Positions 3,562-39,489 of a stretch of DNA of 50,638 nucleotides are shown in pieces. The translations under genes were made by a program, and so were the position numbers. Numbering within the stretch: position 1 is the first letter of the stretch; each line of letters starts with the position of its first letter. The notes beneath the pieces were generated by a model, which ran no database searches, was not told where the DNA came from, and saw only the letters and a program-made list of their open reading frames with translations. Source of the DNA: Winslowiella iniecta (GTDB lineage Bacteria > Pseudomonadota > Gammaproteobacteria > Enterobacterales > Enterobacteriaceae); assembly GCF_001267535.1 (NCBI RefSeq), contig NZ_JRXE01000004.1, positions 90,184-140,821 of the forward strand, read 5' to 3'.

Positions 3562-3629
3562 ATAACGTTCCAGTTCAGGCAGTAATTGCAGGAAGTATAT
3601 ACCCTTCGCCTGTGAAGTGCAGTGGGTTG

Positions 3630-5090: not shown

Positions 5091-5093
5091 CAA

Positions 5094-5762: not shown

Positions 5763-5823
5763 AGGCCATTCCTTTCTCGCAAACTGAGTGAACCAGTGTT
5801 ATCCACTCTCTTTATATGCTGAG

Positions 5824-5829
5824 ATTATA
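5824..5829 (-). promoter_or_regulatory. -10 element of the phoP promoter
   Basis: Perfect TATAAT on the minus strand, about 60 bases upstream of the phoP start and 12 bases downstream of the PhoP box. No good -35 hexamer is present, as expected where PhoP takes that position. Confidence 0.65.
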
Positions 5830-5841
5830 GGAGAAAGCAAC

Positions 5842-5858
5842 TAAACCAGAGGTTAACA
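5842..5858 (-). promoter_or_regulatory. PhoP box upstream of phoP
   Basis: On the minus strand TGTTAA-CCTCT-GGTTTA closely matches the direct repeat (T/G)GTTTA-N5-(T/G)GTTTA, with one mismatch. The box ends 12 bases upstream of the TATAAT at 5824-5829, the arrangement known for PhoP-activated class promoters. Confidence 0.75.
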
Positions 5859-5880
5859 CGGGCCGACATGAATCGGCCCG
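5859..5880 (-). terminator. Hairpin after purB
   Basis: CGGGCCGA, a six-base loop, then TCGGCCCG forms a strong stem just past the purB stop. It has no long T-run and overlaps the distal part of the phoP control region, so it may also insulate phoP from purB transcription. Confidence 0.5.
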
Positions 5881-5887
5881 GCGGGTA

Positions 5888-7273
<1,386 letters not shown>

Positions 7274-7307
7274 TCATTTTACAAGGTATTGGGCTGAACA
7301 CCCGGCG

Positions 7308-7949
7308 TTACGCCGCCGGGCTGAGATTGGCTAAAATTCGTTTCGCTTCGCTGGCAATGCGATTACGGGAAAACATTAATTGCAGGCGGCCACCGCCCAC
7401 CTGGTGCCACAGCACCGCAGAACGAATACCGGCCAGCAGGGTTGCGCGCACTTTGCTTTGCAACTGTGCATTCTGCAATACCGCCGGTGAACCGGTCACC
7501 TGAATACGCGGCCCAAGCGGGCTTATGACATCAACGTAAATCGCCGCCATAGCGCTCAGCAGCGTATCGGATTCGAGATCGTAATGCGCCAGCTGGCGGT
7601 CAAGCTGGGAGATACGACGTGCCAGCTCGTCCATCGCCTGCTTATTGCCGTGCAGTTTGCGCTCCAGCACCATCAGGCTCAGGGTATAACGCGTCAGTTC
7701 AGCACCGACGCCCTGACGACTGCTGGTATTCAGGATTGCCAGTAGCGTTTCCAGACCAAAGCGCAGATTGGCTTCATCACTGCCGTAAACCGCCAGCGTT
7801 GATGAGGGATTTAAGTCCAGTAAACTTCTCAGCGACACTTGCATGATTTCGCCGTCGCAATGGCCCTGGTGCGCCAGCTGCTGTACCAGATGCGCCGACT
7901 GGCAGATGCCAGCCATCGCCAGGGTGATATCATAATAGTTCTTAGCCAC
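7308..7949 (-). CDS. hflD: High frequency lysogenization protein HflD
   Basis: A 213-residue peripheral membrane protein; in E. coli HflD binds lambda CII and affects lysogeny, and its cellular role is unclear. Sequence matches the family from the first residues ([20 protein letters not shown]) to the end, including [20 protein letters not shown] and [17 protein letters not shown]. The start codon is GTG at 7947-7949, the same start used by the E. coli gene. It sits between mnmA and purB in the conserved order. Confidence 0.93.
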
Positions 7950-8021
7950 GGTTACTCCTGTCTACGCTTCCGTCATTACATCACAGGTCATTCATTGATA
8001 TGGCTGGCGCTAATGCCGTTA

Positions 8022-9128
8022 TCAAAGCAGCGGTAAGCGCTCTTCGATAATGCCACCACCGAGGCAAACTTCGCCGAGATAGAACACCGCTGACTGACCC
8101 GGGGTAACCGCGGCAACCGGCTGGTCAAAGCGCACTTCAATGCGCTGATCGTCAAGCGGGGTGATAACACAATCGATATCGCTCTGGCGATAACGGGTCT
8201 TCACCACGCAGCGTAATGGTTCGCGCAGCGTTTCGCGATCGACCCAGTGAAGTTGCTGAGCCACCAGACCGACCGACATCAGGCGGGGATGTTCCGCGCC
8301 CTGAGCGACCACCAGCAGGTTATTGGTGACATCTTTGTCCACCACATACCATGGGTCGTCGTTACTCTCTTTCAGACCGCCAATACCTAAACCTTTACGC
8401 TGGCCGAGGGTGTGATACATCAGACCCTGATGTTGACCCACGGTCTGACCGTCAACGGTGACAATATTCCCTGGCTGCGCGGGCAGGTAGCGGCCCAAAA
8501 AGTCGCGGAATTTGCGCTCGCCGATAAAACAGATACCGGTGGAGTCTTTTTTCTTCGCGGTAATCAGCTCGAGCTGTTCAGCGATGCGGCGCACTTCGGG
8601 CTTGGCCAGTTCGCCAACCGGGAACAGGCTCTGGGCAATTTGCTGATGGCTGAGGGTGTAGAGGAAGTAACTTTGGTCTTTATTGTCGTCGAGGCCGCGC
8701 AGCAGGCGGCTCTTACCGTCAACATCCTGGCGGCGCACGTAGTGGCCGGTGGCAATAAAGTCCGCGCCGAGATCTTCCGCGGCGAATTCGAGGAAGGCTT
8801 TAAATTTGATCTCTTTATTGCACAGGATATCCGGGTTCGGCGTGCGGCCAGCTTTGTACTCTTCAAGGAAATGTTCGAAAACGTTATCCCAGTACTCGGC
8901 AGCAAAGTTAACTTTGTGCAGGCGGATACCCAGTTTGTCGCAAACCGCTTGTGCATCAGCCAGATCTTCGGCAGCGGTGCAGTATTCCTCACCATCATCT
9001 TCTTCCCAGTTCTTCATAAACAGGCCTTCGACCTGATAGCCCTGCTGTTGCAGTAACCATGCGGAAACGGAAGAGTCGACGCCGCCGGACATTCCGACGA
9101 TCACTTTTTTCTGGCTGTTGTCAGACAT
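8022..9128 (-). CDS. mnmA: tRNA-specific 2-thiouridylase
   Basis: A 368-residue cytosolic enzyme that makes 2-thiouridine at the wobble position of tRNA-Lys, -Glu and -Gln with sulfur relayed from IscS and the Tus proteins. The PP-loop [15 protein letters not shown] is at about residues 12-26. The two catalytic cysteines are in [13 protein letters not shown] and [15 protein letters not shown]. Length is normal. It lies 72 bases upstream of hflD on the same strand and 42 bases downstream of nudJ. Confidence 0.96.
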
Positions 9129-9170
9129 GACACACTCACGATAAGGAATAAAAACAGGCGGCGTATTCTA

Positions 9171-9644
9171 TCACGCGTCGCCGAGCGGCGCACCCTCGCA
9201 AAACGGCCATTGAAATGCCTGCAATAACGCCAGCGGATAACGCTCGCCTGATTGCCAGATGCGCACGCTCTCCGCCACCAGCGGTGAACGAAGGTTATCG
9301 GCCTGCAAAATTTGCTGTGGCGTCAGCCACCAGCAGCGATCAATCTCCGCATCCTGTGGCGTGGTTGCCAGTCGGGAAGGCAGGTCGAGAGCAAAGAGAA
9401 AACGTAAAAACGGGGTGCTATCTGGCGCAATCCATTGATGAACACGCAGTAACGCCTGCGGCGTGGCCCGAATGCCGGTCTCTTCAAACAGTTCGCGTTC
9501 AGCGGCCTCAATCAGGGTTTCATTCGCCTCAAGATGTCCGGCCGGCTGATTCCACGTTGCGATGCCGTTAATCGTCTCTTCCACCACCAGCAGCTGGCCT
9601 TCGGCGTGCACCAGGCAGGCAACGGTAACATTAGGTTTAAACAT
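9171..9644 (-). CDS. nudJ: Nudix hydrolase, phosphatase NudJ
   Basis: A 157-residue Nudix protein starting [12 protein letters not shown]. The Nudix box is complete: [20 protein letters not shown] followed by TGI. E. coli NudJ hydrolyses HMP-PP, a thiamine precursor, and nucleoside di- and triphosphates. A longer frame begins at 9701 inside rluE, but the ATG at 9644 gives the family start, with GGAG-like sequence (GGAGAACAGC) just upstream. It is followed by mnmA and preceded by rluE as in E. coli. Confidence 0.92.
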
Positions 9645-9690
9645 GCTGTTCTCCGTAATTGTTAACCACAGGTTATGAGGTCGGCGACCG

Positions 9691-10323
9691 TTAGTGCTCA
9701 AACTCAGCGCTGATATCGCGCCATTCTCCCGGCGCCAGATTCTCCAGCTGAATTGAGCCGAGGGCGAAACGAATCAGCCGCAAAGTCGGGAAGCCAATAT
9801 GCGCTGTCATACGCCGTACCTGACGGTTGCGCCCCTCAAACAGCGTCACTTTTAACCAATTGACAGGAATGGCTTTTCGTTCGCGAATCGGTGGATTGCG
9901 CGGCCATAACCAGTCAGGCTGATCGACTAATTCGATGGCGGCAGGCAGCGTCGGGCCATCTTTCAGATTAACCCCATCGCGCAGCAGTTGCAGGTCGCTC
10001 TCCAGCGGCGCGCCTTCCACCTGCACATAATAAATTTTTCCGGTGCGCTTACCCGGCTGCGTCAGCTTTGCCTGCAGTGCCCCATCATTGGTCAGCACCA
10101 TCAGGCCTTCGCTGTCGCGGTCGAGACGCCCGGCGGCGTAGACCTTAGTGACCGGCACATAATCTTTCAGTGTGGCGCGGCCTGCTTCGTCGGTGAACTG
10201 GGGCAACACGTCAAAGGGTTTGTTGAACACAATGACGCGCCGCGGGCCTTTGGCGGCGTTTTTCGCCGCAGCAGGGCGGCTGAATCGTTTAACGCGGTGA
10301 TTCTTAACGGGAGTTTTCGGCAT
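9691..10323 (-). CDS. rluE: 23S rRNA pseudouridine(2457) synthase
   Basis: A 210-residue RsuA/RluE-family enzyme that makes pseudouridine 2457 in 23S rRNA. The catalytic motif is [18 protein letters not shown], whose first Asp is the nucleophile, with the later motif [20 protein letters not shown] basic N-terminal tail ([20 protein letters not shown]) precedes the domain. The Met at 10323 is preferred to one at 10353, whose extra residues reach into the icd promoter region. It diverges from icd. Confidence 0.93.
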
Positions 10324-10454
10324 GGTCTTTGCAGTTTGTGACAATGAGCGCATTATAACGCAAAGCTGCGGTGATTGGCGCGGAGTTAATATTCAAGTAG
10401 TATTGACGCGCATCTTACAAATCATTAACAAAAAAGCGCTCGAAGGAGAGGTTA

Positions 10455-11705
10455 ATGGAAAGCAAAGTAGTTGTTCCGGCGGAAGGTCAAAAAATCACCC
10501 AGGTTCAGGGAAAACTGGTCGTTCCAAACAACCCTGTCATTCCTTTTATCGAAGGTGATGGTATTGGGGTTGATGTTTCACCAGTGATGATCAAAGTGGT
10601 TGATGCCGCTGTGCAGAAAGCCTACAACGGCGAGCGAAAAATCTCCTGGATGGAAATCTATACCGGTGAGAAGTCTGTCGAGCTGTATGGTCCGGATGTC
10701 TGGTTACCAGAAGAAACTCTCGACCTGATTAAAGAGTACCGCGTTGCCATCAAAGGCCCGCTGACCACCCCGGTCGGTGGCGGTATTCGTTCTCTGAACG
10801 TTGCCTTACGTCAACAGCTGGATCTGTACATCTGTCTGCGTCCGGTACGTTACTATCAGGGCACACCAAGCCCGGTCAAGCGTCCAGAAGACACCGATAT
10901 GGTGATTTTCCGCGAGAACTCCGAAGATATCTATGCGGGTATCGAGTGGAAAGCAGGTTCTGCAGAAGCAGACAAAGTGATCAAGTTCCTCAAAGACGAA
11001 ATGGGCGTGCAGAAAATTCGCTTCCCTGAGCAGTGTGGTATCGGCATCAAGCCGTGCTCAGAAGAAGGGACGAAGCGTCTGGTGCGTGCGGCGATTGAGT
11101 ATGCGATCACTAACGATCGTGACTCTGTCACCCTGGTGCACAAAGGCAACATCATGAAATTCACCGAAGGTGCGTTCAAAGATTGGGGTTACCAGCTGGC
11201 TCGTGATGAGTTTGGCGGTGAACTGATCGACGGCGGCCCATGGGTGAAAATCAAGAACCCTAATAACGGCAAAGAGATCGTTATCAAAGACGTGATCGCC
11301 GATGCATTCCTGCAGCAGATCCTGCTGCGTCCGGCTGAGTATGACGTTATCGCCTGTATGAACCTCAACGGTGACTACATTTCTGATGCGCTGGCTGCTC
11401 AGGTTGGTGGTATCGGTATCGCACCGGGTGCCAACATTGGTGACGAGTGTGCGCTGTTTGAAGCGACCCACGGTACTGCACCTAAGTACGCTGGCCAGGA
11501 TAAAGTGAACCCAGGTTCAGTGATCCTGTCTGCGGAGATGATGTTGCGTCATATGGAATGGTTCGAAGCGGCTGACCTGATCGTTAAAGGTATGGAAGGC
11601 GCCATCGCGGCGAAAACCGTGACTTACGATTTCGAACGTCTGATGGACGGCGCTAAGCTGCTGAAATCCTCAGAGTTTGGCGATGCAATGATTAAGCATA
11701 TGTAA
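10455..11705 (+). CDS. icd: Isocitrate dehydrogenase (NADP+)
   Basis: A 416-residue TCA-cycle enzyme, as long as E. coli Icd, that converts isocitrate to 2-oxoglutarate. The phosphorylation and substrate-binding serine is visible in [16 protein letters not shown] (Ser113), and the family signature [20 protein letters not shown] is intact. A good Shine-Dalgarno site (AAGGAGAGG) precedes the ATG. In E. coli and relatives the 3' end of icd is used as an attachment site by e14 and other elements. Here the reading frame is complete and is followed by accessory genes, but I see no duplicated icd 3' end in the window. Confidence 0.97.
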
Positions 11706-11720
11706 TTTTGCTTGATTAGT

Positions 11721-11766
11721 ATCAGGCCGGTTGCAGCGTTAACCTGCGGCTGGCCTGATGTGTTTT
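11721..11766 (+). terminator. Terminator after icd
   Basis: ATCAGGCC ... GGCCTGAT forms a long stem with an inner TTGCAG/CTGC pairing, followed by TGTTTT. It lies 16 bases after the icd stop. Confidence 0.7.
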
Positions 11767-11827
11767 AAGGCCTTTCCCCAACACCGTCAAACGTGGCAAT
11801 TAAACAGATTACTTCACGTTCTGTTAT

Positions 11828-30258: not shown

Positions 30259-30270
30259 GTAATCGATTAC
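30259..30270. promoter_or_regulatory. LacI-type operator, upstream copy
   Basis: GTAATCGATTAC, a perfect 12-bp palindrome with a central CG step, as LacI/GalR-family proteins need. It lies within a 17-base segment (30258-30274) that recurs exactly at 30288-30304. Confidence 0.75.
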
Positions 30271-30288
30271 TTTAGTTTTCACTCTAAT

Positions 30289-30300
30289 GTAATCGATTAC
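30289..30300. promoter_or_regulatory. LacI-type operator, downstream copy
   Basis: Second GTAATCGATTAC, exactly 30 bp (about three helical turns) from the first and 18 bases before the transporter ATG. Binding here would block initiation. The likely repressor is the LacI-family protein at 32693-33673. Confidence 0.75.
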
Positions 30301-30318: not shown

Positions 30319-31548
30319 ATGGTATCGACCACGCAACGCTCAGATAAACCGGCTGTACCGCAGCGGATGCTGATTCCGCGCCTGTCATTGATGATGTTTA
30401 TGCAGTTTTTTATTTGGGGCAGTTGGTCTGTCACTCTCGGGCTGGTGATGACGCAGCACAATATGGCGCTACTGATAGGCGATGCGTTCTCGGCCGGGCC
30501 CATCGCGTCGATATTATCTCCGTTTGTACTCGGCATGCTGGTGGATCGTTTTTTCCCGTCGCAGAGGGTGCTGGCGCTGATGCACCTGGCAGGAGCGGTG
30601 ATTTTGTGGTTCGTGCCGCAGGCGCTGATCGCTGAAAACGGCACACTGCTTATTGCCTTACTGTTTGGTTATACGCTTTGCTATATGCCGACGCTGGCAT
30701 TGACCAATAATATTGCGTTCCACAGCCTGGCCAGCAGCGACAAAAGTTTTCCTGTGGTGCGTGTATTTGGCACCATTGGCTGGATCGTGGCGGGCATTTT
30801 TATCGGCGTCGCCGGTATTTCCGCCAGCGTGTCGATCTTTACGGTGGCCGCCATCTGCTCGGTGGCGCTGGCGGTCTACAGCCTGACACTGCCACAGACG
30901 CCTGCACCGGCTAAAGGGCTGCCATTTACATTGCGCGACCTGTTGTGTGCCGATGCCTTCGCGCTGCTGAAAACCCGCCATTTCTTTATCTTTGCCCTGT
31001 GTGCCACGCTTATTTCCATTCCGCTCGGCACTTATTATGCCTTTACCGCCTCGTGGCTGGCGGATGCAGGTATTGAAAATGTCAGCACCGTGATGTCGCT
31101 CGGTCAGATGTCAGAAATCTTCTTTATGCTGGTGATCCCGCTGTTGTTCCGCCGTCTTGGTGTCAAATACATGCTGTTTATTGGCATGTGCGCCTGGTTC
31201 GTGCGTTACGCGCTGTTTGCCCTGGGAATGAACGATGAAACCCGCACGCTGATCTATCTTGGCATCCTGCTGCATGGCGTCTGTTATGACTTCTTCTTTG
31301 TGGTGGGATTTATCTACACCGACCGTATTGCCGGTGAAAAAGTAAAAGGGCAGGCGCAGAGCATGGTGGTGATGTTTACTTATGGCATCGGCATGTTGCT
31401 CGGCTCGCAGATTTCCGGCGCGCTGTATAACAATCTGGTCGCCGGTCAGGTCTCAGCGGCAAACTGGGCGCTGTTCTGGTGGATCCCGGCGGTTGCGGCT
31501 GCGGCGATCGCCATTATTTTCCTCTTCTCGTTCAAATATCGGGACTAA
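30319..31548 (+). CDS. MFS transporter, nucleoside:H+ symporter (NHS/NupG-like) family
   Basis: A 409-residue permease with about 12 membrane helices. It matches the NupG/XapB/YegT branch of the MFS: MQFFIWGSWSVTLGLVM in helix 1, LCYMPTLALTNNIAFH, RVFGTIGWIVAG and the C-terminal FKYRD. NHS members carry nucleosides, but many relatives next to dehydrogenase genes carry glycosides or polyols. The Met at 30319 is chosen: an upstream in-frame Met at 30232 would make both operator copies coding. The isomerase gene follows after 25 bases. Confidence 0.87.
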   Translation: MVSTTQRSDKPAVPQRMLIPRLSLMMFMQFFIWGSWSVTLGLVMTQHNMALLIGDAFSAGPIASILSPFVLGMLVDRFFPSQRVLALMHLAGAVILWFVPQALIAENGTLLIALLFGYTLCYMPTLALTNNIAFHSLASSDKSFPVVRVFGTIGWIVAGIFIGVAGISASVSIFTVAAICSVALAVYSLTLPQTPAPAKGLPFTLRDLLCADAFALLKTRHFFIFALCATLISIPLGTYYAFTASWLADAGIENVSTVMSLGQMSEIFFMLVIPLLFRRLGVKYMLFIGMCAWFVRYALFALGMNDETRTLIYLGILLHGVCYDFFFVVGFIYTDRIAGEKVKGQAQSMVVMFTYGIGMLLGSQISGALYNNLVAGQVSAANWALFWWIPAVAAAAIAIIFLFSFKYRD

Positions 31549-31573
31549 GAGGGTTTCTTTGTTGGAGGTGGAT

Positions 31574-32638
31574 ATGAAAACATTAAAAGGTCCGGGCATT
31601 TTTTTATCGCAGTTTATTCGTCATCAGGCACCGTATAACTCGCTGGAAGGGCTGGCGAAGTGGGCATCAGGTCTGGGTTATCAGGCGTTACAGATCCCCT
31701 GTAATCACCCGGCAATATTCGATCTGGAAAAAGCGGCAGCCAGTCAGACTTATTGTGATGAAGTGAGCGGACTGCTGGCAAACTATGGCCTGATGGTGAG
31801 CGAGCTGTCGACGCATCTGGAAGGGCAACTGATTGCGGTGCATCCGGCGCATGATGTGGCATTCGACAGCTTTGCACCCGCTGCGGTACGCGGCAACAAC
31901 GCCCGTCGTACCGAATGGGCCATCGATACGGTGAAGCGTGCGGCGGTGGCATCGGCGAAACTTGGCCTCCGCGCACATGCGACCTTTTCCGGCTCCCTCG
32001 CCTGGCCTTACCTCTATCCATGGCCGCCACACAATGCGCAATTGCTGAATGAAGCGTTTGCCGAACTGGCACGTCGCTGGCTGCCGGTGCTGGATGAGTT
32101 TGACCGCCAGGGGGTGGATGTCTGTTACGAAATACATCCGGGTGAAGATCTGCATGATGGTGTGACATTTGAACGCTTTCTGGCGTCAGTGAATCAGCAT
32201 CCGCGCTGCAATATTTTGTTCGATCCCAGTCATCTCCATCTGCAACATATTGATTATTTGCAGTTTATTGATATCTATCATTCGCGTATTAAAGCCTTTC
32301 ACGTTAAGGATGCGGAATATCTGCCTAACGGACGCAGCGGCGTGTATGGCGGCTATCAGCGTTGGATTGATCGGGCCGGGCGCTTCCGCTCGCCGGGTGA
32401 CGGGCAGATCGATTTCAGGGGGATTTTCAGCAAGCTGGCCCAATACGACTATGACGGCTGGGCGGTACTGGAGTGGGAATGCTGCCTGAAAGACGCCGAC
32501 AGCGGCGCGCGTGAAGGAGCCGAATTTATTCAGCGCCATATTATTCCGGTCGCCGATCGGGCCTTTGATGACTTTGCGGCCAGGGACGTTGGCTCAGCCA
32601 GCGTGCGGGCGCTACTGGGGCTAAACCAGATCGACTGA
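31574..32638 (+). CDS. TIM-barrel sugar isomerase/epimerase (AP endonuclease 2 fold)
   Basis: A 354-residue protein of the xylose-isomerase-like TIM-barrel superfamily. Metal ligands fit EIHPGEDLHD (Glu and His), LFDPSHLHLQ (Asp and His), KAFHVKDAEY (His) and VLEWECCLKD (Glu). Related enzymes in glycoside clusters, such as YcjR, epimerise or process 3-keto sugars. GGAGGTG precedes the ATG. It sits between the NHS permease and a LacI-type gene, all in one direction. The exact reaction is not known. Confidence 0.85.
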   Translation: MKTLKGPGIFLSQFIRHQAPYNSLEGLAKWASGLGYQALQIPCNHPAIFDLEKAAASQTYCDEVSGLLANYGLMVSELSTHLEGQLIAVHPAHDVAFDSFAPAAVRGNNARRTEWAIDTVKRAAVASAKLGLRAHATFSGSLAWPYLYPWPPHNAQLLNEAFAELARRWLPVLDEFDRQGVDVCYEIHPGEDLHDGVTFERFLASVNQHPRCNILFDPSHLHLQHIDYLQFIDIYHSRIKAFHVKDAEYLPNGRSGVYGGYQRWIDRAGRFRSPGDGQIDFRGIFSKLAQYDYDGWAVLEWECCLKDADSGAREGAEFIQRHIIPVADRAFDDFAARDVGSASVRALLGLNQID

Positions 32639-32692
32639 TATATTTATGGTAGCCTGTCTGCCATCAGTTTGCTTGCAGGAAGTGTGTTCCTC

Positions 32693-33673
32693 ATGTCCAT
32701 TCAAAAAATCGCCCGTCTGGCGGGCGTGTCTGTTGCTACGGTTTCACGGGTGCTGAATAACAGTGATTCAGTGAAAGAAAAAAATCGCACCAAAGTCCTG
32801 CAGGCCATCAGCGAAAGTAACTACCAGCCGAATCTGTTAGCACGTCAGTTACGCACCGCTCGCAGTTCGATGATCCTCGTGATGGTTTCTGATATTTCTA
32901 ACCCGTTTTGCGCCGAAGTGGTCAAGGGCATTGAGGAGCAGGCCGAGCAAAACGGCTACCGTATATTGTTGTGCAATTCAGGTTCTGACATCGAACGCTC
33001 GCGCTCCAGCCTGCAATTGCTGGCTGGTAAAATGGTCGATGGCATCATTACTATGGATGCCTTCAGCAAGTTGCCCGAACTGACGCAGCTGATTGGCGTC
33101 ACTCCCTGGGTTCAGTGTGCGGAATATGCTGATGCCGGTGATATCTCTTGTGTCGGAATCAGCGATATCGAGGCTTCACAACAGGTGGTGCGTTACCTGG
33201 CGGGCAAGGGGCACCGACGGATTGCGTTAATTAACCACGATCTTAGCTACAAATACGCCCGGTTGCGCCAGCAAGGTTATCTGCAGCAGTTGCAGAGCAG
33301 TCAGCTGGAGTGGCAGGCGGTCACTTACGCCAGTGAGTTAAGTTTCAGCGCCGGAAAACGCGCGATGGCAACATTACTGGCTGGCGAACAGCGGCCTGAC
33401 GCGGTGTTTGCGGTGTCGGATACGCTGGCTGCTGGCGCCATGTCGGCAATTTTTCAGCGCGGATTACGGGTGCCGCAGGATATCGCGGTGGCCGGTTTTG
33501 ATGGCAGCGAGTTAGCGGAAATGGTGTCGCCACCGTTAACCACTATCGCCCAGCCTTCGCGAGATATTGGCCGTAAAGCCTTTACGCTGCTGCTGCAAAA
33601 GATCGACAAACCGCAATCGCCCGCCGAACGTATCATGATGGACTGGCAGTTGGTTGTGCGTGCCAGTGCCTGA
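32693..33673 (+). CDS. LacI-family transcriptional regulator 1
   Basis: A 326-residue repressor. The HTH is IQKIARLAGVSVATVSRVLN and the hinge helix NLLARQLRTARS has the leucine that inserts at a central CG base step. The effector domain is a standard periplasmic-binding fold (VSDISNPFCAEVVKGIEEQ ... VAGFDGSELAEMVSPPLTTI). The Met at 32693, with AGGAAG upstream, is preferred to 32669. It lies 54 bases after the isomerase gene, probably in the same operon, and most likely binds the twin GTAATCGATTAC sites, giving autoregulation. Confidence 0.9.
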   Translation: MSIQKIARLAGVSVATVSRVLNNSDSVKEKNRTKVLQAISESNYQPNLLARQLRTARSSMILVMVSDISNPFCAEVVKGIEEQAEQNGYRILLCNSGSDIERSRSSLQLLAGKMVDGIITMDAFSKLPELTQLIGVTPWVQCAEYADAGDISCVGISDIEASQQVVRYLAGKGHRRIALINHDLSYKYARLRQQGYLQQLQSSQLEWQAVTYASELSFSAGKRAMATLLAGEQRPDAVFAVSDTLAAGAMSAIFQRGLRVPQDIAVAGFDGSELAEMVSPPLTTIAQPSRDIGRKAFTLLLQKIDKPQSPAERIMMDWQLVVRASA

Positions 33674-33681
33674 TTGCTGAA

Positions 33682-33978
33682 TTATGGCTCGCTGCGCGGC
33701 TTATCAATATGCCCCAGTTCCCGTTCAGGGAAACACTGTGAGCGAACTCGTCGCTTAATCTCAGCCGCATCCGGAAAACCGCCCATGGTTTTCCGATCCC
33801 AAATCAGCTGATCATCAACGGTTATCTGATAAATCCCGCCGGTAGCCGGGATTAATGTCACCTGCGCCAGATCGGTACTGAAAGTACTTAACAGTTCCTG
33901 CGACATCCACGCGGCACGTAACAGCCAGTTGCATTGTGAACAATAGGTAATCGTCACCACGGGCAGAGTTTTCATCAT
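33682..33978 (-). CDS. SelT/SelW/SelH-family (Rdx) protein
   Basis: A 98-residue protein of the selenoprotein W-like thioredoxin-fold family, with a Cys form of the redox motif (TYCSQCNWLLRAAW, CxxC) and the family end with LIWDRKTMGGFPDAAEIKRR. These proteins are thought to work in thiol redox reactions; the bacterial role is undefined. AGGA is five bases before the chosen ATG (33978); another Met lies one codon on. It is convergent with the LacI gene (8 bases apart) and sits inside the sugar cluster without an obvious functional tie. Confidence 0.87.
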   Translation of the reverse strand: MMKTLPVVTITYCSQCNWLLRAAWMSQELLSTFSTDLAQVTLIPATGGIYQITVDDQLIWDRKTMGGFPDAAEIKRRVRSQCFPERELGHIDKPRSEP

Positions 33979-34107
33979 TAACATCCTGATTTTGACATTT
34001 ATCTGAATTACGAAACGGTCAGTTTGCCCGATCGTCGCGGGCTTATCAGCTTTTTCATTTCTGCCATCAACAGTTGAGGGTTTTCCATCATTAAAGCGAT
34101 ACCGAAG

Positions 34108-34138
34108 TGACCTGACGGTTGCCTATAGTGAGGTCAGG
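34108..34138. promoter_or_regulatory. Promoter with inverted repeat upstream of the iolE-like gene
   Basis: TGACCTGAC ... GTGAGGTCAGG flanks a TATAGT -10-like element at 34124-34129. Two overlapping pairs (TGACCT/AGGTCA and CCTGAC/GTCAGG) make an imperfect dyad, a candidate operator for a cluster regulator. Confidence 0.4.
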
Positions 34139-34157
34139 ATCACTCAGGAGAACTCAG

Positions 34158-35087
34158 ATGAAGGCAGTCGCTGTACAACTCGGGGTCAGCCCGTTGTGCT
34201 GGACCAATGATGTGCTGGAAGATTTAGGGGGCGATATTCCGCTGGAAACCTGCCTGCAACAGGCGGCGCAGGCGGGCTATCGCGGCATTGAGCTGGGACG
34301 TAAATTTCCCCGTCGGGCAGCTGAGCTTGCGCCGCTGTTATCCACCGCCGGATTACAACTGGCATCGGGCTGGCACAGCGGTTTTCTCGCCGATCGCAGT
34401 GTCGATGAGGAAGTTGAGGCGGTGCGCGAGCACGCCGATTTGCTGCATCAGCTTGGTGCAAAAGTGATGGTATATGGCGAATGCGGTCAGCTGCCAGGGG
34501 CGACGCCGCTCGATGAGCCGCTGTCGTTGTCACCACGGCTAAGCGCTGTCGATCTGGCAAGTTATGCCGCCAAAGTGAATGCCTTTGCCGATATTTTACT
34601 GCGTGATTATGATCTGAAGCTGGCCTATCACCACCATCTGATGATGCTGGTGGAACATGACGATGAGCTGGACAGTTTCTTGCAGCATACCAGCCATAAC
34701 GTCGGTCTGGTGCTGGATTCCGGCCACGGCTATGCCGCAGGCGTGAATATTGCCGCCGTGTTGAAAAAATATGCTCAGCGCATTGTGCATATCCATCTGA
34801 AAGATGTTCGCCCGGCGATCCTCGAACGCATTCAAACCGAAGATTTGAGCTTTAACGACGCGGTACGCGCCGGATTATTTACCGTGCCCGGTGAGGGCTG
34901 CATTGATTACCGTCCGCTGATTGAGTTTGTCCGCCACTCAGGCTATCAGGGCTGGCTGATTGTTGAGGCCGAACAGGATCCGGATACTGCGCCGCCGCTA
35001 GCCACCGCCACCCGCGCCGCACGCTGGGTCAGTCAGCAATTCGGCGTCAGCCTTGCCGTGGAGACCGCATCATGCGTAACACACTGA
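34158..35087 (+). CDS. IolE-like TIM-barrel protein (myo-inosose-2 dehydratase type)
   Basis: A 309-residue protein with the IolE layout: GVSPLCWTNDVLEDLGGDIP near the start (family form N-P-x-x-W-x-N-D-D), then YGECGQLPG, YHHHLMMLVE, LDSGHGYAAGV, HIHLKDVRP and IVEAEQDP, which supply the metal ligands of the barrel. IolE dehydrates 2-keto-myo-inositol to a diketone. The ATG at 34158 follows CAGGAG. It overlaps the next dehydrogenase gene by 16 bases, so the products probably work together. IolE identity is good but the true substrate could be another keto-polyol or keto-sugar. Confidence 0.82.
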   Translation: MKAVAVQLGVSPLCWTNDVLEDLGGDIPLETCLQQAAQAGYRGIELGRKFPRRAAELAPLLSTAGLQLASGWHSGFLADRSVDEEVEAVREHADLLHQLGAKVMVYGECGQLPGATPLDEPLSLSPRLSAVDLASYAAKVNAFADILLRDYDLKLAYHHHLMMLVEHDDELDSFLQHTSHNVGLVLDSGHGYAAGVNIAAVLKKYAQRIVHIHLKDVRPAILERIQTEDLSFNDAVRAGLFTVPGEGCIDYRPLIEFVRHSGYQGWLIVEAEQDPDTAPPLATATRAARWVSQQFGVSLAVETASCVTH

Positions 35088-36244
35088 ATATCGGCCTGAT
35101 TGGTTCGGGTTTTATGGGACAGGCACATGCCGATGCCTATCGTCGCGCCGCGATGATCTGGCCCGATCTGCCGAAACGGCCGGTGCTGTATGCGGTCGCG
35201 GACCAGGATCAACCAATGGCCGACGCGTCGGCCACGCGCTTTGGCGCGCAAAAAGCCTATGGCGACTGGCGCGATCTGGTAAACGACAGCGACGTCGATG
35301 TGGTGGATATCACGTCGCCCAACCATCTGCATTTTGAGATGGCAATTGCGGCGATAAAGGCCGGCAAGCACGTTTACTGCGAAAAACCGCTGGCGGTCAA
35401 TTCGCAGCAGGCGCGTGAGATGACCGAAGCGGCACGTCGCGCCGGAGTCAAAACCATGGTGGCGTTTAACAATATCAAAACGCCAGCGGCGCTGCTGGCG
35501 CGGCAGATAATTGAACGCGGTGATATCGGCACCCCGGTGCGCTTTCGCGGGACCTTTGACCAGGGGTTCTACAATGACCCTACGCTGCCCTGGTCATGGC
35601 GCTGTTCGAAAACCCTGGGGGGCAGCGGTGCGCTCGGCGATTTAGGCGCGCATACCCTGTCGGTCGCGCAGTTTCTGATGGGTGGCATCAGTGAAGTGAC
35701 CGCCAGCGCCCAGACCTTTCTGCGTCAGCGGCCGGTCCCGCAGGTGGATGCCGGTTACGCCAGCCGCATTGATACCCATGCGGAGATGCGTGAAGTGGAA
35801 AACGACGATCAGGTGCAGTGCCTGGTGAACTTCCACAGCGGCGCGTCGGGGGTGATTGAGGCGTCGCGCATTGCTGCCGGGCGCATCTTTGGCGTGTTCT
35901 GGGAAGTCTCCGGGACGGAGGGCACCCTGTATATGGACGGCGAACGCTTTAATGAACTGCAACTCTATCGCTTTAGCGATGACAAACACGATCGCGGCTT
36001 TAAAACGCTGTATGCCGGTAGTCAGATCCCGGCTTATTCCGGCTTCTTTGGCTTTGATTTTGGCGGCGGTGGCCTCGGATACTTCGATATCAAAGTGATC
36101 GAAGTCCACGACCTGGTTCAGGGTATCTGTAGCGATCATGACTGTTATCCGAATTTTGCTTTTGGCCTGGAGAATCAGCAGATCCTGACGGCGATTGAAC
36201 AGTCGATGGTGTCCCGCAGCTGGACGCCGGTGGCCGCTGACTAA
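35072..36244 (+). CDS. Gfo/Idh/MocA oxidoreductase 1
   Basis: A 390-residue NAD(P)-dependent dehydrogenase. The Rossmann loop is IGLIGSGFMGQAHADAY, the catalytic Lys is in VYCEKPLAVN, and the DxGxH motif is in GSGALGDLGAHTL. The substrate domain, with FRGTFDQGFYNDPTLPWSWR and a long C-terminal extension, resembles levoglucosan dehydrogenase and related sugar 3-dehydrogenases more than IolG. The start overlaps the iolE-like gene. The next dehydrogenase gene follows 32 bases after the stop. Confidence 0.87.
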   Translation: MRNTLNIGLIGSGFMGQAHADAYRRAAMIWPDLPKRPVLYAVADQDQPMADASATRFGAQKAYGDWRDLVNDSDVDVVDITSPNHLHFEMAIAAIKAGKHVYCEKPLAVNSQQAREMTEAARRAGVKTMVAFNNIKTPAALLARQIIERGDIGTPVRFRGTFDQGFYNDPTLPWSWRCSKTLGGSGALGDLGAHTLSVAQFLMGGISEVTASAQTFLRQRPVPQVDAGYASRIDTHAEMREVENDDQVQCLVNFHSGASGVIEASRIAAGRIFGVFWEVSGTEGTLYMDGERFNELQLYRFSDDKHDRGFKTLYAGSQIPAYSGFFGFDFGGGGLGYFDIKVIEVHDLVQGICSDHDCYPNFAFGLENQQILTAIEQSMVSRSWTPVAAD

Positions 36245-36276
36245 ATCCTCCATTATTTTCAGTAACAGGAGAAAGT

Positions 36277-37308
36277 ATGTTTCCTTCTTCACTTCCGACT
36301 CCGCGTCTTCCGGCATCCGGCAGCATTCCAGCATTGCGCTGGGGGATTATCGGTCCCGGCTGGATTGCCGACCACTTTGCCCGGGCATTACGCCAGCAGA
36401 CTTCTCAGCAGCTGGTGGCGGTCTCGTCCCGCAGTCAGCAAAAAGGCCAGGCGTTTGCCGAAAAATGGGATATTCTCCGGGTGTTTACTGATGTTGATCA
36501 GATGCTGGCGCTGCCCGATCTCGACGCGGTGTATATCGCCACGCCGCATAACCATCATTATCCGGATGGCCTGAAGGTACTGAAGGCCGGTAAACATACG
36601 CTGATTGAAAAACCGCTGGCGCTCAATGCCCGCGAGGCCACCGAGCTTCAGCAGCTGGCGCAACAGCAGGGCGTACTCTGTATGGAGGCGATGTGGTGCG
36701 ATTTTACGCCTAAATATGCTGTGTTACGTCAACTGCTGGCAGACGGCGTTTTAGGGGATCTGCATACCCTGATTGCCGATCACGGCGAGTTTTTTACCCC
36801 CGATCATCGTATTTTTAATCAGGCGCTGGCAGGCGGCCCAATGCTCGATCTCGGCAGCTACCTGATTGGGCTGAGTGTTAATGTGGGCGGCGCGCCGGAG
36901 AACATTGTGGCGCACGGTCAGCCCGCGCCCGGTGGCGTGAATGGTCAGGCATCTATGCTGCTGACCCACGGCAACGGGATGCATTCGGTGCTCAACACCA
37001 CCTTATTCAGCAATACGCCAGGCGGGGCGGTGATTGCCGGACGTGACGCGACTATCGTGATGGACGGACAGTTTTACGCGCCGGGCGCGTTTACCCTGAC
37101 CTCAAGCCAGGGCGGCAAAGTACTACGCTGGGAAGAGCCGCTTAACCGCTATGCGCAGCTGAGTTATGAAGCTGAGCATTTTGCCTGGTGTGTCGGGCAA
37201 GGGCTGACGGACTCACCGGTGCGGCCGCTTGCCACCTCATTGCTGACGCTGTCGGTAATGGATGAGGTGCGCCGACAGATCGGTGTCGTATTTAACGAAG
37301 AACGCTGA
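36277..37308 (+). CDS. Gfo/Idh/MocA oxidoreductase 2 (dihydrodiol/xylose dehydrogenase type)
   Basis: A 343-residue protein with WGIIGPGWIADHFARAL (cofactor loop, GxGxxA), LIEKPLALNA with the catalytic Lys, MEAMWCDFTPKY, and MLDLGSYLIG, where Tyr stands where others have His. This set is typical of dimeric dihydrodiol dehydrogenase/D-xylose dehydrogenase relatives. AGGAGA precedes the ATG. It is third in the iolE-like operon and ends at a bidirectional terminator. A second oxidation or a re-reduction step in the same pathway is plausible. Confidence 0.86.
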   Translation: MFPSSLPTPRLPASGSIPALRWGIIGPGWIADHFARALRQQTSQQLVAVSSRSQQKGQAFAEKWDILRVFTDVDQMLALPDLDAVYIATPHNHHYPDGLKVLKAGKHTLIEKPLALNAREATELQQLAQQQGVLCMEAMWCDFTPKYAVLRQLLADGVLGDLHTLIADHGEFFTPDHRIFNQALAGGPMLDLGSYLIGLSVNVGGAPENIVAHGQPAPGGVNGQASMLLTHGNGMHSVLNTTLFSNTPGGAVIAGRDATIVMDGQFYAPGAFTLTSSQGGKVLRWEEPLNRYAQLSYEAEHFAWCVGQGLTDSPVRPLATSLLTLSVMDEVRRQIGVVFNEER

Positions 37309-37314
37309 TGGCGA

Positions 37315-37336
37315 CAGGGCGACAAATGTCGCCCTG
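37315..37336. terminator. Bidirectional terminator
   Basis: CAGGGCGACA, AA, TGTCGCCCTG: a perfect 10-bp inverted repeat between convergent dehydrogenase genes. Confidence 0.75.
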
Positions 37337-37343
37337 ACTGTTT

Positions 37344-38357
37344 TCAGCCAGTAATCTGCTCAACGGTACAGAATCGTTTTTCGGCCAGCGACTGCACCGC
37401 CGCTTCAGCAATCGCCTGCGCCTGTAACCCATCCAGCAAACCCGGCAGATCCGCTGTCAGCTCGCCGTTTAACTGGCGCACAAAGGCATCCAGATGCAGG
37501 TAATAACTCTCTTTCACCCGGCTGAACCAGTCCGGCCACAGGCCTGGCCGACGCTGCTGATTACCCTGCCATAGCGTGACGCCTTGCGGGCTTTGACTGC
37601 CGGATTCAGCCAATCCACGCGCACCCAGTACGCTGATGCGCTCATCATAGCCATAACCGGTTCGCCGGGTATTATCCAGCTGTGCCAGAGCGCCGCTGGC
37701 CATCTGCATAATCAATACTGAGGTATCCACATCGCCAAAGGCGCTAATTTCAGGCTGCGCCAGCGCGCTGCCCATCGCGCCGACGACAGTGACTTCATCT
37801 GCCGTCAGCCAGCGCAGCAGATCGAAAAAGTGGATGGCCTGATCGCGCATTTGTCCGCCAGAAGCCTGCAAATAACTGAGGGGCGGCATCTCTGATGAGC
37901 GGCAAACCATCTGAATCAGTTCTGCGCCCCCGATGTCGCCTCGTTGCAGATGCTGTTTTAGCTGCTGGTGGCTGGCATCAAAACGGCGATTAAAGCCGAC
38001 GGTAACCGGCACAGAGAGCGGCAGCACTTGCGCCACTACCTGTCTGGCGCGCGTAAGAGAAAGATCGATTGGCTTCTCACAATAGATGGCTTTACCGGCG
38101 CGGGCGGCGGTCAGCAGCAGTTCAGCATGGGAAGGGGTGGAACTGGCAATCAGTACCGCATCAATGGTATCGCTGTTAATGGCGGCCGAAACCTCTGCGC
38201 ATTTTGCGCCGTAGCGCTGCGCAACGGCTGCCGCCCGTGAGGGATCGCTGTCCGCCACCATCACCAGTTCAGTGTCAGGATGCATGGCCAGATTCTGTGC
38301 ATGAACCTGACCGATAAAACCGCTGCCGAGCAGGGCAAATCTCTGTTTTGCTGCCAT
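37344..38357 (-). CDS. Gfo/Idh/MocA oxidoreductase 3, inositol 2-dehydrogenase-like
   Basis: A 337-residue protein close to IolG in layout: FALLGSGFIGQVHAQNL, YCEKPIDLSL, VGFNRRFDASH and GGQMRDQAIHFFDLLRWL (IolG enzymes usually have R-D-M-T-I-H-D-F-D here). IolG oxidises myo-inositol to 2-keto-myo-inositol, the IolE substrate, so with the IolE-like gene it would give the first two steps of inositol breakdown. The Met at 38357 (MAAKQRFALL) is chosen; longer frames run into the divergent LacI promoter. It is divergent from LacI regulator 2. Confidence 0.85.
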   Translation of the reverse strand: MAAKQRFALLGSGFIGQVHAQNLAMHPDTELVMVADSDPSRAAAVAQRYGAKCAEVSAAINSDTIDAVLIASSTPSHAELLLTAARAGKAIYCEKPIDLSLTRARQVVAQVLPLSVPVTVGFNRRFDASHQQLKQHLQRGDIGGAELIQMVCRSSEMPPLSYLQASGGQMRDQAIHFFDLLRWLTADEVTVVGAMGSALAQPEISAFGDVDTSVLIMQMASGALAQLDNTRRTGYGYDERISVLGARGLAESGSQSPQGVTLWQGNQQRRPGLWPDWFSRVKESYYLHLDAFVRQLNGELTADLPGLLDGLQAQAIAEAAVQSLAEKRFCTVEQITG

Positions 38358-38398
38358 TTTTACTCCGGGGTTAAGCGTGAAATATCGCCGAATGTGCA

Positions 38399-38426
38399 TT
38401 GCCAAAATACCTTTCCCCGATACACT
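38399..38426 (+). promoter_or_regulatory. Promoter of LacI regulator 2
   Basis: TTGCCA (38399-38404) and TACACT (38421-38426) with a 16-base spacer, 44 bases before the regulator ATG. Confidence 0.45.
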
Positions 38427-38469
38427 TGATGAACGGTGTTTTGATGGAAATCCCTCAACGGAGCGCGAC

Positions 38470-39489
38470 ATGAAAAAAGTCACCCTGGAACAACTGGCGA
38501 AAACGGCGGGAGTGGGGGTGGCGACGGTTGATAGGGTGCTGAATGAGCGTGGCGGCGTTTCACCGCAAACCAGCCGTAAAGTACTGGAGGCGGCGCGCGA
38601 TGCCGGGCTGAAGCGGATTCTGCCGGAGGAGCATCGTCATCCGTGGCAGCTTGAAGTGATACTGAGCGGCAATGACTCTTTCTTTTTTAAACAGCTGGCG
38701 CAGGACTTCAGTGAGGTGGCATCCGGCCACGGCTATCGCCGCCTGACGCTGCACCGTACCTTTATTCCCGAATCCCGTCCTGACAAGCTGGCGGCGCATA
38801 TTGTCGCCTGTAGCGCCAGGCGCGACGGGCTGATCGTTTTTGCGCATGAATATCCGGCAATTTATGACGCGCTGGCGCTCTGCAAACAGCGTGGCGTGCC
38901 GGTAATCACCATCGTAACCGATTTGCCAGGCGTGGAAAGATTATGTCACGTGGGAATTAACCAGTTGCAGGCTGGCCGCACCGCGGGATGGTTGATGGGA
39001 AAAATGCTGCACACTGATGGCGAAGTGATTATGGTCAGCGGTCGCTTTGATTACAGCGCCCATCGCCAGCGCATTCAGGGATTTCGTGATGTGCTGCAAC
39101 AAAGCTTCCCGCATATCCGGCTGCGCGAAGTGCTGGCCGGACAGGAGCGCCGCGACACCATCAGTAAATTGCTGGAGCAGCAACTGGCGCAGTCGGGTGA
39201 GGTGGCGGGCATTTATAATACCGGCCTCGGTAACAGTGAAATCAGCGAAGCGCTGGATCGCCATCGCCTTCTCGGTAAAAGCGTATTTATTACCCACGAA
39301 CTGTATACCACCACCGAGGCGCTGCTGGCGAAAAATGCTGTCTCGCTGACCCTCGACCAGAACACCCGCCAGCACGCTCAACTGGCGATCACATTGATGC
39401 TCCGGCACCTCGACAGCGGCGCGCAGCCAGAAACCTACGCCGAGGGCAAAGTTGAATTTATGCTGTTCACCTGGGAGAACTACCGTTAA
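38470..39489 (+). CDS. LacI-family transcriptional regulator 2
   Basis: A 339-residue protein with the HTH VTLEQLAKTAGVGVATVDRV. After it the usual hinge helix (N-x-x-A-R-x-L) is not recognisable; the linker reads DAGLKRILPEEHRHPWQ. The effector domain resembles sugar- or polyol-binding proteins (type 4 periplasmic binding: YNTGLGNSEISEALDRH). This subtype often controls inositol or sugar dehydrogenase clusters. The Met at 38470, with CGGAG upstream, is preferred to 38377. It is divergent from the IolG-like gene, its probable target. Confidence 0.87.
   Translation: MKKVTLEQLAKTAGVGVATVDRVLNERGGVSPQTSRKVLEAARDAGLKRILPEEHRHPWQLEVILSGNDSFFFKQLAQDFSEVASGHGYRRLTLHRTFIPESRPDKLAAHIVACSARRDGLIVFAHEYPAIYDALALCKQRGVPVITIVTDLPGVERLCHVGINQLQAGRTAGWLMGKMLHTDGEVIMVSGRFDYSAHRQRIQGFRDVLQQSFPHIRLREVLAGQERRDTISKLLEQQLAQSGEVAGIYNTGLGNSEISEALDRHRLLGKSVFITHELYTTTEALLAKNAVSLTLDQNTRQHAQLAITLMLRHLDSGAQPETYAEGKVEFMLFTWENYR

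What the first reader, a model, noticed from the sequence alone, without database searches (positions are those of the whole stretch)
30319..39489. Accessory carbohydrate cluster with three Gfo/Idh/MocA dehydrogenases and two TIM-barrel partners
One NHS-type permease, two xylose-isomerase-fold proteins (one IolE-like) and three dehydrogenases of different subtypes (levoglucosan-dehydrogenase-like, dihydrodiol/xylose-dehydrogenase-like, IolG-like) lie together with two LacI-type regulators, and no kinase, aldolase, ABC transporter or glycoside hydrolase. Known systems that pair this dehydrogenase family with TIM-barrel proteins (YcjR/YcjS, levoglucosan and C-glycoside cleavage, inositol pathways) work by oxidising a ring carbon first. 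I infer an oxidative pathway for a plant glycoside, anhydrosugar or inositol isomer. The gene combination may be undescribed.
Basis: partly seen in the sequence, partly recalled or inferred. Interest (0 to 1): 0.75.

Follow-up and report, generated by a model that had tools for sequence, protein, structure and literature searches.

The report
Two neighbouring sugar and inositol modules
What looked like one new sugar-breakdown cluster is two separately controlled gene modules lying side by side in an Erwinia-like bacterium: a stripped-down module for sugars cleaved without hydrolysis, and a widely shared inositol-type module built around an unusual relative of a known inositol enzyme.

Summary
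The genes are there as described, but they are two modules split by a resident Rdx gene. Module A (permease, TIM1, LacI1) is a reduced glycoside-utilisation locus. TIM1 is 61% identical to 2-hydroxy-3-keto-glucal hydratase. Two copies of GTAATCGATTAC precede the permease, as in 18 of 19 fetched relatives with both genes; 13 of the 19 keep an adjacent reductase-like gene that is missing here. Module B (TIM2, DH1, DH2, DH3, LacI2) has another operator, TGAKGGNNNNCCMTCA, ahead of TIM2 and between DH3 and LacI2. None of 80 TIM2 loci carries the permease or TIM1. At the same chromosomal site one relative has only A, another only B.

TIM2 passes the curated IolE cut-off and folds like IolE, but has HHHLMM where most operon IolEs have HHHMGT. 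Outside enterobacteria module B often lies beside inositol operons, and this genome has a separate inositol operon. A third operator copy lies between a LacI2 paralogue and a membrane FAD-dehydrogenase operon.

Best reading: A salvages 3-keto-glucosides; B oxidises and dehydrates a cyclitol other than plain myo-inositol. Substrates are inferred. New variant of known kinds; the single-pathway idea is not supported.

The parts
30259..30300 (.). Module A operator pair: two exact copies of GTAATCGATTAC (30259-30270 and 30289-30300) upstream of the permease
   Evidence: 2 found, 0.00 expected; the only two in the own genome; two copies within about 60 bases of the permease start in 18 of 19 fetched loci with permease and TIM1 (the exception is L141); none in 1.58 Mb of TIM2 loci
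30319..31548 (+). Module A permease, Nuc_H_symport family (MFS)
   Evidence: Pfam PF03825 324 bits; below the nucleoside-permease cut-off
31574..32638 (+). Module A TIM1: 2-hydroxy-3-keto-glucal hydratase homologue
   Evidence: 522.5 bits to PDB 8ro4, full length; 61% identity over 348 residues
32693..33673 (+). Module A LacI1, LacI-family regulator
   Evidence: Pfam LacI and Peripla_BP_3; present in 18 of 19 fetched loci with permease and TIM1
33685..33978 (-). Rdx-family gene, resident boundary between the modules (part of neither)
   Evidence: Pfam Rdx 109.5 bits; in G119 it follows LacI1, in Winslowiella it precedes TIM2
34075..34090 (.). Module B operator TGAGGGTTTTCCATCA upstream of TIM2
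   Evidence: 0.07 matches expected in the window for TGAKGGNNNNYCMTCA; a like site upstream of TIM2 in nine further loci
34158..35087 (+). Module B TIM2: IolE-family TIM barrel of the HHHLMM type
35072..36244 (+). Module B DH1: Gfo/Idh/MocA dehydrogenase of the levoglucosan / scyllo-inositol dehydrogenase clade, overlapping the end of TIM2
   Evidence: 770 bits to 4gqa, 302 to 6a3f, 277 to 5ya8; tree; catalytic Lys, Asp, His kept
36277..37308 (+). Module B DH2: Gfo/Idh/MocA dehydrogenase, clade of its own
   Evidence: best solved relative is dimeric dihydrodiol dehydrogenase 2o48, 168.7 bits; 70% identical copy beside a membrane FAD-dehydrogenase operon in G222; tree
37344..38357 (-). Module B DH3: IolG-like Gfo/Idh/MocA dehydrogenase, divergent from LacI2
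   Evidence: TIGR04380 308.2 bits, cut-off 355; 234.5 bits to 4hkt; tree
38442..38457 (.). Module B operator TGATGGAAATCCCTCA between DH3 and LacI2
   Evidence: a like site at the same place in six other loci
38470..39489 (+). Module B LacI2, LacI-family regulator with Peripla_BP_4 domain
   Evidence: 64% identical paralogue beside a third operator copy at G000:C16

Best explanation
Two independently acquired and independently regulated catabolic modules flank a resident Rdx gene. Module A (permease, TIM1, LacI1) is a reduced glycoside-utilisation locus: the permease imports a 3-keto-glucoside or its eliminated glycal, and TIM1 hydrates 2-hydroxy-3-keto-glucal to 3-keto-glucose. A reductase encoded elsewhere must finish the job, because the LgdC-like reductase that 13 of 19 fetched relatives keep next to TIM1 is missing here. 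Module B (TIM2, DH1, DH2 in one operon; DH3 and LacI2 divergent) is an inositol-type module: DH1 and DH3 oxidise cyclitol isomers to keto-inositols, DH2 works with the product of a membrane FAD dehydrogenase of the same regulon, and TIM2, an IolE relative, eliminates water. The dione formed enters the separate iol pathway of the same genome. Shown: gene content, homology, operator conservation, independent assortment, predicted IolE fold and the neighbourhood link to inositol operons. Inferred: substrates, direction of each dehydrogenase, transport, and which regulator binds which operator.
Against: I found no biochemistry for any window protein. 0 of 15 enterobacterial TIM2+DH1 loci lie beside iol genes, so the inositol link rests on relatives 51-58% identical at TIM2. 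DH1's best characterised relative by score is levoglucosan dehydrogenase (302 bits) rather than scyllo-inositol dehydrogenase (277). PMC10066097 (passages) places proteins annotated as inosose dehydratase (LgdB3) near LgdA, so an IolE-like neighbour does not by itself exclude a levoglucosan-type role. TIM2 lacks the HHHMGT loop of most operon IolEs. The Klebsiella binding protein is only 29% identical to that of an E. coli plasmid iol operon. The third regulon member resembles gluconate 2-dehydrogenase and fructose dehydrogenase, not a known inositol oxidase. The operator is absent from nine other enterobacterial TIM2+DH1 loci that I scanned (L017-L021, L068, L075, L076, L171). Three of the four family genomes with a TIM2 of 68% identity or more, own genome included, also hold TIM1, so some functional tie between A and B is not excluded.
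Confidence: 0.7

Rival explanations
1. One combined pathway for a glucoside or anhydrosugar: DH1 oxidises C3 (LgdA role), TIM2 eliminates (LgdB1 or LgdB3 role), TIM1 hydrates (LgdB2 role), DH2 or DH3 reduces 3-keto-glucose (LgdC role), the permease imports.
For: Role for role the window resembles the four-enzyme levoglucosan pathway (PMC7676230, parts 1-2 of 4 read); DH1 is 41% identical to an LgdA-type protein and TIM1 29% to the second TIM barrel of that cluster; inosose-dehydratase-annotated proteins (LgdB3) occur near LgdA (PMC10066097, passages); DH4 is missing here, so another dehydrogenase could replace it; three of four family genomes with a close TIM2 also carry TIM1.
Against: Different operators; no co-conservation in 80 loci; TIM2 only 26% identical to the LgdB1-like protein but 46% to an IolE in an E. 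coli plasmid iol operon; fold far closer to IolE than to 3-keto lyases; DH1 far below the levoglucosan cut-off.
Confidence: 0.12
2. Module B is simply a second standard myo-inositol entry set (spare IolE and IolG copies), with no substrate of its own.
For: TIM2 passes the IolE cut-off; module B lies beside iol genes in 22 of 33 non-enterobacterial loci; 5 of 22 IolE rows inside iol operons also read HHHLMM.
Against: This genome and the annotated operons already have their own IolE; HHHLMM in all 53 DH1-linked rows against HHHMGT in 17 of 22 operon rows; eight genomes with the HHHLMM type each hold a further IolE over the cut-off; a dedicated operator and regulator exist.
Confidence: 0.12
3. 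Module B handles keto-sugar acids (2-keto- or 2,5-diketo-gluconate) made by the membrane FAD dehydrogenase of its regulon, and the iol neighbourhood elsewhere reflects a different use there.
For: Third operator copy between a LacI2 paralogue and a Gluconate_2-dh3 / GMC / cytochrome c operon, also in Winslowiella; in G222 DH2 sits directly beside that operon with two operator copies.
Against: The flavoprotein matches no curated gluconate model and its best solved match is fructose dehydrogenase at 120 bits; TIM2 and DH3 are IolE- and IolG-like.
Confidence: 0.12

Closest known systems
Non-hydrolytic glycoside utilisation (A. tumefaciens 2-hydroxy-3-keto-glucal hydratase AtHYD, PDB 8ro4; four-step route described in PMC13273386)
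   Same: TIM1 is a full-length homologue at 61% identity; relatives of module A also encode an LgdC-like reductase (13 of 19) and an apparently exported TIM barrel matching 3-keto-glucopyranoside lyases (3 of 19, one searched)
   Different: In the window only permease, hydratase homologue and regulator remain; no dehydrogenase, lyase or reductase under the same operator
Levoglucosan pathway lgdA-lgdB1-lgdB2-lgdC (PMC7676230, PMC10066097)
   Same: DH1 belongs to the clade of LgdA; TIM1 is a distant relative of the second TIM barrel of a levoglucosan-type cluster
   Different: DH1 misses the curated cut-off; TIM2 is IolE-like rather than LgdB1-like; two operators. LgdB3 sequences were not compared
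myo-Inositol pathway iolABCDEG
   Same: TIM2 passes the IolE model and fold; DH3 is IolG-like; module B neighbours iol operons in many Alphaproteobacteria
   Different: No iolB, iolC, iolD or iolA in module B; HHHLMM in place of HHHMGT; the standard set is on another contig
C. glutamicum oxiC-cg3390-oxiD-oxiE (iol2 cluster, PMC9603128, passages)
   Same: Three Gfo/Idh/MocA proteins with one putative sugar phosphate isomerase; OxiD and OxiE act on myo-, D-chiro- and scyllo-inositol, OxiC alone did not restore growth
   Different: Sequences were not compared here; module B adds its own LacI operator and an IolE-type TIM barrel
P. laeviglucosivorans scyllo-inositol / L-glucose dehydrogenase (5ya8, PMC5969746, passages)
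   Same: Same clade as DH1 in my tree and as 4GQA in the paper; Lys106, Arg178, Asp191 and His195 kept
   Different: His318 of the swapped loop is Gly in DH1
E. coli ycjQ-ycjR-ycjS
   Same: Gfo/Idh/MocA dehydrogenases beside a TIM barrel
   Different: DH2 only 31% over 204 residues to YcjS; TIM2 22% to YcjR

Membership tests
IolE, myo-inosose-2 dehydratase | TIGR04379 equivalog cut-off of 290 bits | tested here: met
   TIM2 340.5 bits
IolE, myo-inosose-2 dehydratase | IolE fold | tested here: met
IolE, myo-inosose-2 dehydratase | HHHMGT loop seen in operon-borne IolE (a pattern found here, not a published definition) | tested here: not met
   TIM2 reads HHHLMM, as do all 53 DH1-linked rows; 17 of 22 operon rows read HHHMGT, 5 read HHHLMM
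IolE, myo-inosose-2 dehydratase | dehydration of scyllo-inosose | not testable with these tools
   needs purified enzyme
IolG, inositol 2-dehydrogenase | TIGR04380 cut-off of 355 bits | tested here: not met
   DH3 308.2 bits
Levoglucosan dehydrogenase | NF052479 cut-off of 650 bits | tested here: not met
   DH1 372.6 bits
Levoglucosan pathway | LgdB1-type eliminase beside the dehydrogenase | tested here: not met
   TIM2 26% identical to the LgdB1-position protein, 46% to an operon IolE; LgdB3 not compared
2-Hydroxy-3-keto-glucal hydratase | full-length close homology to 8ro4 | tested here: met
   TIM1 522.5 bits, residues 1-349; 61% identity
2-Hydroxy-3-keto-glucal hydratase | hydratase activity | not testable with these tools
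   needs purified enzyme
Glycoside utilisation locus (four steps) | 3-dehydrogenase, lyase, hydratase and reductase together | tested here: not met
   module A has only the hydratase homologue; the own genome has no close relative of DH4 (best 33%) or of the exported lyase-like protein (best 27%)
Nucleoside permease | TIGR00889 cut-off of 446.1 bits | tested here: not met
   316.9 bits
Rhizopine catabolism (moc genes) | MocA and MocC homology | not tested
   no moc sequences compared

The most novel reading that the evidence does not exclude
The HHHLMM proteins are an unrecognised IolE subfamily for a cyclitol ketone that canonical IolE does not take, and module B with its LacI2 regulon is an undescribed cyclitol route in Enterobacterales in which a membrane FAD dehydrogenase (PQQ dehydrogenases lie near it in some relatives) oxidises the substrate in the periplasm before uptake.
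Probability: 0.35. Interest if true: 0.7.

Novelty: new variant of a known kind. Interest (0 to 1): 0.5.

Why it matters
It corrects a tempting single-pathway reading and gives two testable units with exact operator sequences. Public records label many HHHLMM proteins iolE; if they act on another keto-inositol, many genomes of plant-associated bacteria carry a wrong pathway assignment, and DH1, of which 4gqa is a close solved homologue described as biochemically uncharacterised in PMC5969746, would gain a substrate class. Module A relatives, found in 92 of 392 family genomes by TIM1, show that a hydratase of the non-hydrolytic glycoside route is common in this family with a recognisable operator, including stripped forms.

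Tried and rejected
Single levoglucosan-like pathway: rejected as best reading on operators, co-conservation, family cut-offs and fold. YcjS/YcjR-like pathway: similarity too low. Plain second myo-inositol set: disfavoured by the motif and the separate iol operon. TIM2 as sole IolE in some rhizobia: I thought L041, L050, L051 and L056 showed this, but all eight genomes searched hold a further IolE over the cut-off, and the loops read there are HHHMGT or HHHMAA (L194 and L196 gave no motif), so that argument fell. A VYGE motif beside the loop looked like a second mark of the HHHLMM type, but my pattern failed on several rows, and I do not claim it. The relaxed operator pattern has eight sites in the own genome; three are symmetric (two in the window, one on C16) and were used; of the other five I read only one, on C2, which lies by unrelated genes. 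In ten relatives the pattern gives further symmetric sites; I fetched five regions: L234-L236 carry module B regulon genes, L237 and L238 do not; the rest were not read.

Literature: the paper recalled as Kastner et al. 2024 (glycoside utilisation locus, source of 8ro4) is not held, and its content is recalled only. My searches of open-licence papers turned up nothing in their listings that describes module B or the HHHLMM type; several of these list only the top 15 to 20 of many papers, so absence from print is not shown.
Full report
WHAT IS THERE. In order: permease 30319-31548, TIM1 31574-32638, LacI1 32693-33673, TIM2 34158-35087, DH1 35072-36244, DH2 36277-37308, DH3 37344-38357 (minus), LacI2 38470-39489. 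A ninth gene was missed: a 98-residue Rdx-family protein on the minus strand at 33685-33978, between LacI1 and TIM2. The window lies on contig C4 of a 4.78 Mb genome. Two genomes with the same genus code match Erwinia rhapontici and Erwinia endophytica by contig coordinates, so the host is probably an Erwinia (inference).

FAMILIES. Only TIM2 passes a curated equivalog cut-off (IolE, 340.5 against 290). DH1 scores 372.6 on levoglucosan dehydrogenase (cut-off 650), DH3 308.2 on IolG (355), the permease 316.9 on nucleoside permease (446.1). Among solved structures TIM1 is a full-length homologue of 8ro4, 2-hydroxy-3-keto-glucal hydratase (522.5 bits; 61% identity). DH1 is closest to 4gqa (770 bits), then levoglucosan dehydrogenase 6a3f (302; the chain is named putative dehydrogenase, and PMC10066097 names its entries 6A3I and 6A3G as LGDH) and scyllo-inositol dehydrogenase 5ya8 (277). 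DH2 is closest to dimeric dihydrodiol dehydrogenase and DH3 to inositol 2-dehydrogenase 4hkt.

TWO MODULES. A search for TIM2 relatives in 84,980 species genomes gave 178 matches, of which the best 80 were kept. None of the 80 fetched stretches (some cut short by contig ends) holds the permease or TIM1. TIM2 and DH1 lie together in 48 of 80, and the complete set with DH2, DH3 and LacI2 recurs in Winslowiella, Serratia inhibens, the enterobacterium CwR94 and Pantoea. In the window's family TIM2 relatives reach E <= 1e-80 in 39 of 392 genomes; of the 12 loci returned, own one included, 6 have DH1 beside TIM2. TIM1 relatives occur at E <= 1e-60 in 92 of 392. I fetched 20 of those 92 regions. Nineteen have permease and TIM1; of the 19, 18 have LacI1 in the stretch, 13 a further dehydrogenase (DH4) next to TIM1, and 3 an apparently exported TIM barrel (signal-like start, judged by eye); one region (L142) has TIM1 alone. 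At the window's own chromosomal site the same-genus genome G119 has permease, TIM1, LacI1 and then the Rdx gene, without TIM2; Winslowiella has a TonB-receptor-like gene, the Rdx gene and then TIM2, DH1, DH2, DH3, LacI2, without permease or TIM1. The window has both, one on each side of Rdx.

TWO REGULONS. Two exact copies of GTAATCGATTAC end 18 and 48 bases before the permease start (0.00 expected) and occur nowhere else in the genome. Two copies lie 15 to 55 bases before the permease in 18 of 19 permease-TIM1 loci; the exception, L141, is the most divergent permease (63%) and has none. Extra copies precede the exported TIM barrel in 3 of 3 loci that have it. Module B has a different palindrome, TGAKGGNNNNCCMTCA, at 34075 and 38442 (0.07 expected for the slightly wider TGAKGGNNNNYCMTCA). 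It recurs upstream of TIM2 in nine further loci (L007-L013, L172, L176) and between DH3 and LacI2 in six of them (L007, L008, L009, L012, L172, L176); L011, L012 and L172 need A in place of C at one position. The other enterobacterial loci scanned (L014-L021, L062, L068, L075, L076, L171) have no site. The strict pattern was found 0 times in 1.28 Mb of L022-L086 and 0 times in 257 kb of module A loci, and the module A operator 0 times in 1.58 Mb of L007-L086. Which LacI binds which site is inferred from position.

MODULE A. DH4 is 36% identical to the protein at the LgdC position of an Arthrobacter cluster whose LgdA is 87% identical to 6a3f; the second TIM barrel of that cluster is 29% identical to TIM1. 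The tree puts DH4 with that LgdC-like protein only weakly (82/71) and on long branches. The exported TIM barrel of L127 matches 8bvk (243 bits) and the 3-keto-beta-glucopyranoside-1,2-lyases 8tcd and 8tct (71-76 bits). Full module A therefore looks like lyase, hydratase, reductase and permease under one operator, the later steps of the four-step route described in PMC13273386 (parts 1 and 3 of 3 read). The window genome has no close relative of DH4 (best 33%) or of the exported lyase (best 27%). Permease, TIM1 and LacI1 without DH4 occur in 5 other loci of the 19 (L123, L129, L130, L133, L140) and on a Pantoea agglomerans plasmid, so the reduced form is unlikely to be decay in one strain. PMC7676230 (parts 1-2 of 4) reports that LgdB2 also performs the elimination, and PMC10066097 (passages) relays the suggestion that LgdA may reduce 3-keto-glucose, so a reduced set could be functional.

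INOSITOL LINK. In A. larrymoorei and A. pusense module B (in the order LacI, DH3, TIM2, DH1, DH2) lies directly beside a regulator and an iolB-iolE-iolD-iolC run with its own IolE, and in Thioclava beside iolC-iolD-iolE. Of 33 non-enterobacterial TIM2+DH1 loci 22 have iolB, iolC, iolD or iolG in the stretch; of 15 enterobacterial ones none has (the iol genes were named by BLAST against the own genome's set). A DH1-clade protein is also part of an iol operon on an E. coli plasmid (tree). In K. pneumoniae the DH3-LacI2 half lies about 93 kb from the TIM2 half, with transposase-like genes (my reading of the translations) at the break, and LacI2 is followed by an ABC transporter whose permease and binding protein are 55% and 44% identical to those of an Agrobacterium iol cluster; the binding protein is 29% identical to that of the E. 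coli plasmid iol operon and 26% to the levoglucosan-type one. The window genome has its own iolB (336.8 bits, cut-off 205), iolD (970.2, 715), iolE (400.2, 290) and an IolG of the myo/D-chiro type (569.9, 540) on contig C7; the iolA-like gene is cut by the end of the stretch (341.1 against 448.5), and iolC, which holds a masked stretch, was named by eye. A tree of 40 dehydrogenases puts DH1, DH2 and DH3 in three separate supported clades, each holding its alphaproteobacterial counterparts; the DH3 clade also holds the IolG of the E. coli plasmid operon (some long branches meet).

REGULON. A third perfect module B operator lies at C16 of the own genome between a LacI2 paralogue (64% identical) and a divergent operon for a Gluconate_2-dh3 subunit, a GMC flavoprotein and a cytochrome c. 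Winslowiella has the same arrangement. In G222, a same-genus genome without TIM2 at E <= 1e-80, that operon faces two operator copies followed by a DH2 gene (70% identical to the window's) and the LacI2 paralogue. PQQ-dependent membrane dehydrogenases lie in the stretch of L008, L009, L062 and others, and a GMC/cytochrome c set in Asaia and Thioclava. This ties module B, and DH2 above all, to periplasmic oxidation. The substrate of that oxidase is unknown; its best solved match is fructose dehydrogenase.

VERDICT. The most likely account is a reduced 3-keto-glucoside module beside a cyclitol module. Both are variants of known chemistry. The HHHLMM branch of IolE and its link to membrane dehydrogenases are the new elements, and the substrates remain open.

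Noticed in passing
L207 (G000:C16:24000-41000), 2979-8492: LacI2 paralogue divergent from a three-subunit membrane FAD dehydrogenase with a perfect module B operator; a second small-subunit/GMC pair begins at 15493.
   Followed up: partly
L005 (G000:C7:12000-31000), 7548-11769: Another accessory set in the own genome: a small TIM barrel (L5hyi), a Gfo/Idh/MocA-like protein, an IolE-like TIM barrel (179 bits on the IolE model) and a LacI regulator.
   Followed up: no
L010 and L236 (K. pneumoniae ATCC 13883): Module B is split into two halves about 93 kb apart with transposase-like genes at the break; in strain 176 (L176) the halves are together.
   Followed up: partly
L235, 4023-10294: Same-genus genome without TIM2 keeps DH2, a LacI2 paralogue and the membrane FAD dehydrogenase around two tandem module B operators.
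   Followed up: partly
L062, L074, L079, L080, L083, L085: HHHLMM IolE relatives in Pantoea and Erwinia beside a PQQ membrane dehydrogenase; in L062 and L074 also a further TIM barrel and an MFS-like transporter: a possible third cyclitol arrangement.
   Followed up: no
L014-L016 and many rhizobial loci (e.g. L036): HHHLMM IolE in the same stretch as a hydroxypyruvate-isomerase-like TIM barrel (L5hyi) and an IolG-like dehydrogenase, no DH1.
   Followed up: no
plasmid record CP060162.1: Labelled Acinetobacter venetianus but its TIM1 match equals that of a Pantoea eucrina plasmid in identity and score; perhaps a mislabelled record.
   Followed up: no
record CP125156.1: Listed as a plasmid of K. 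pneumoniae but 5.37 Mb long; probably the chromosome.
   Followed up: no
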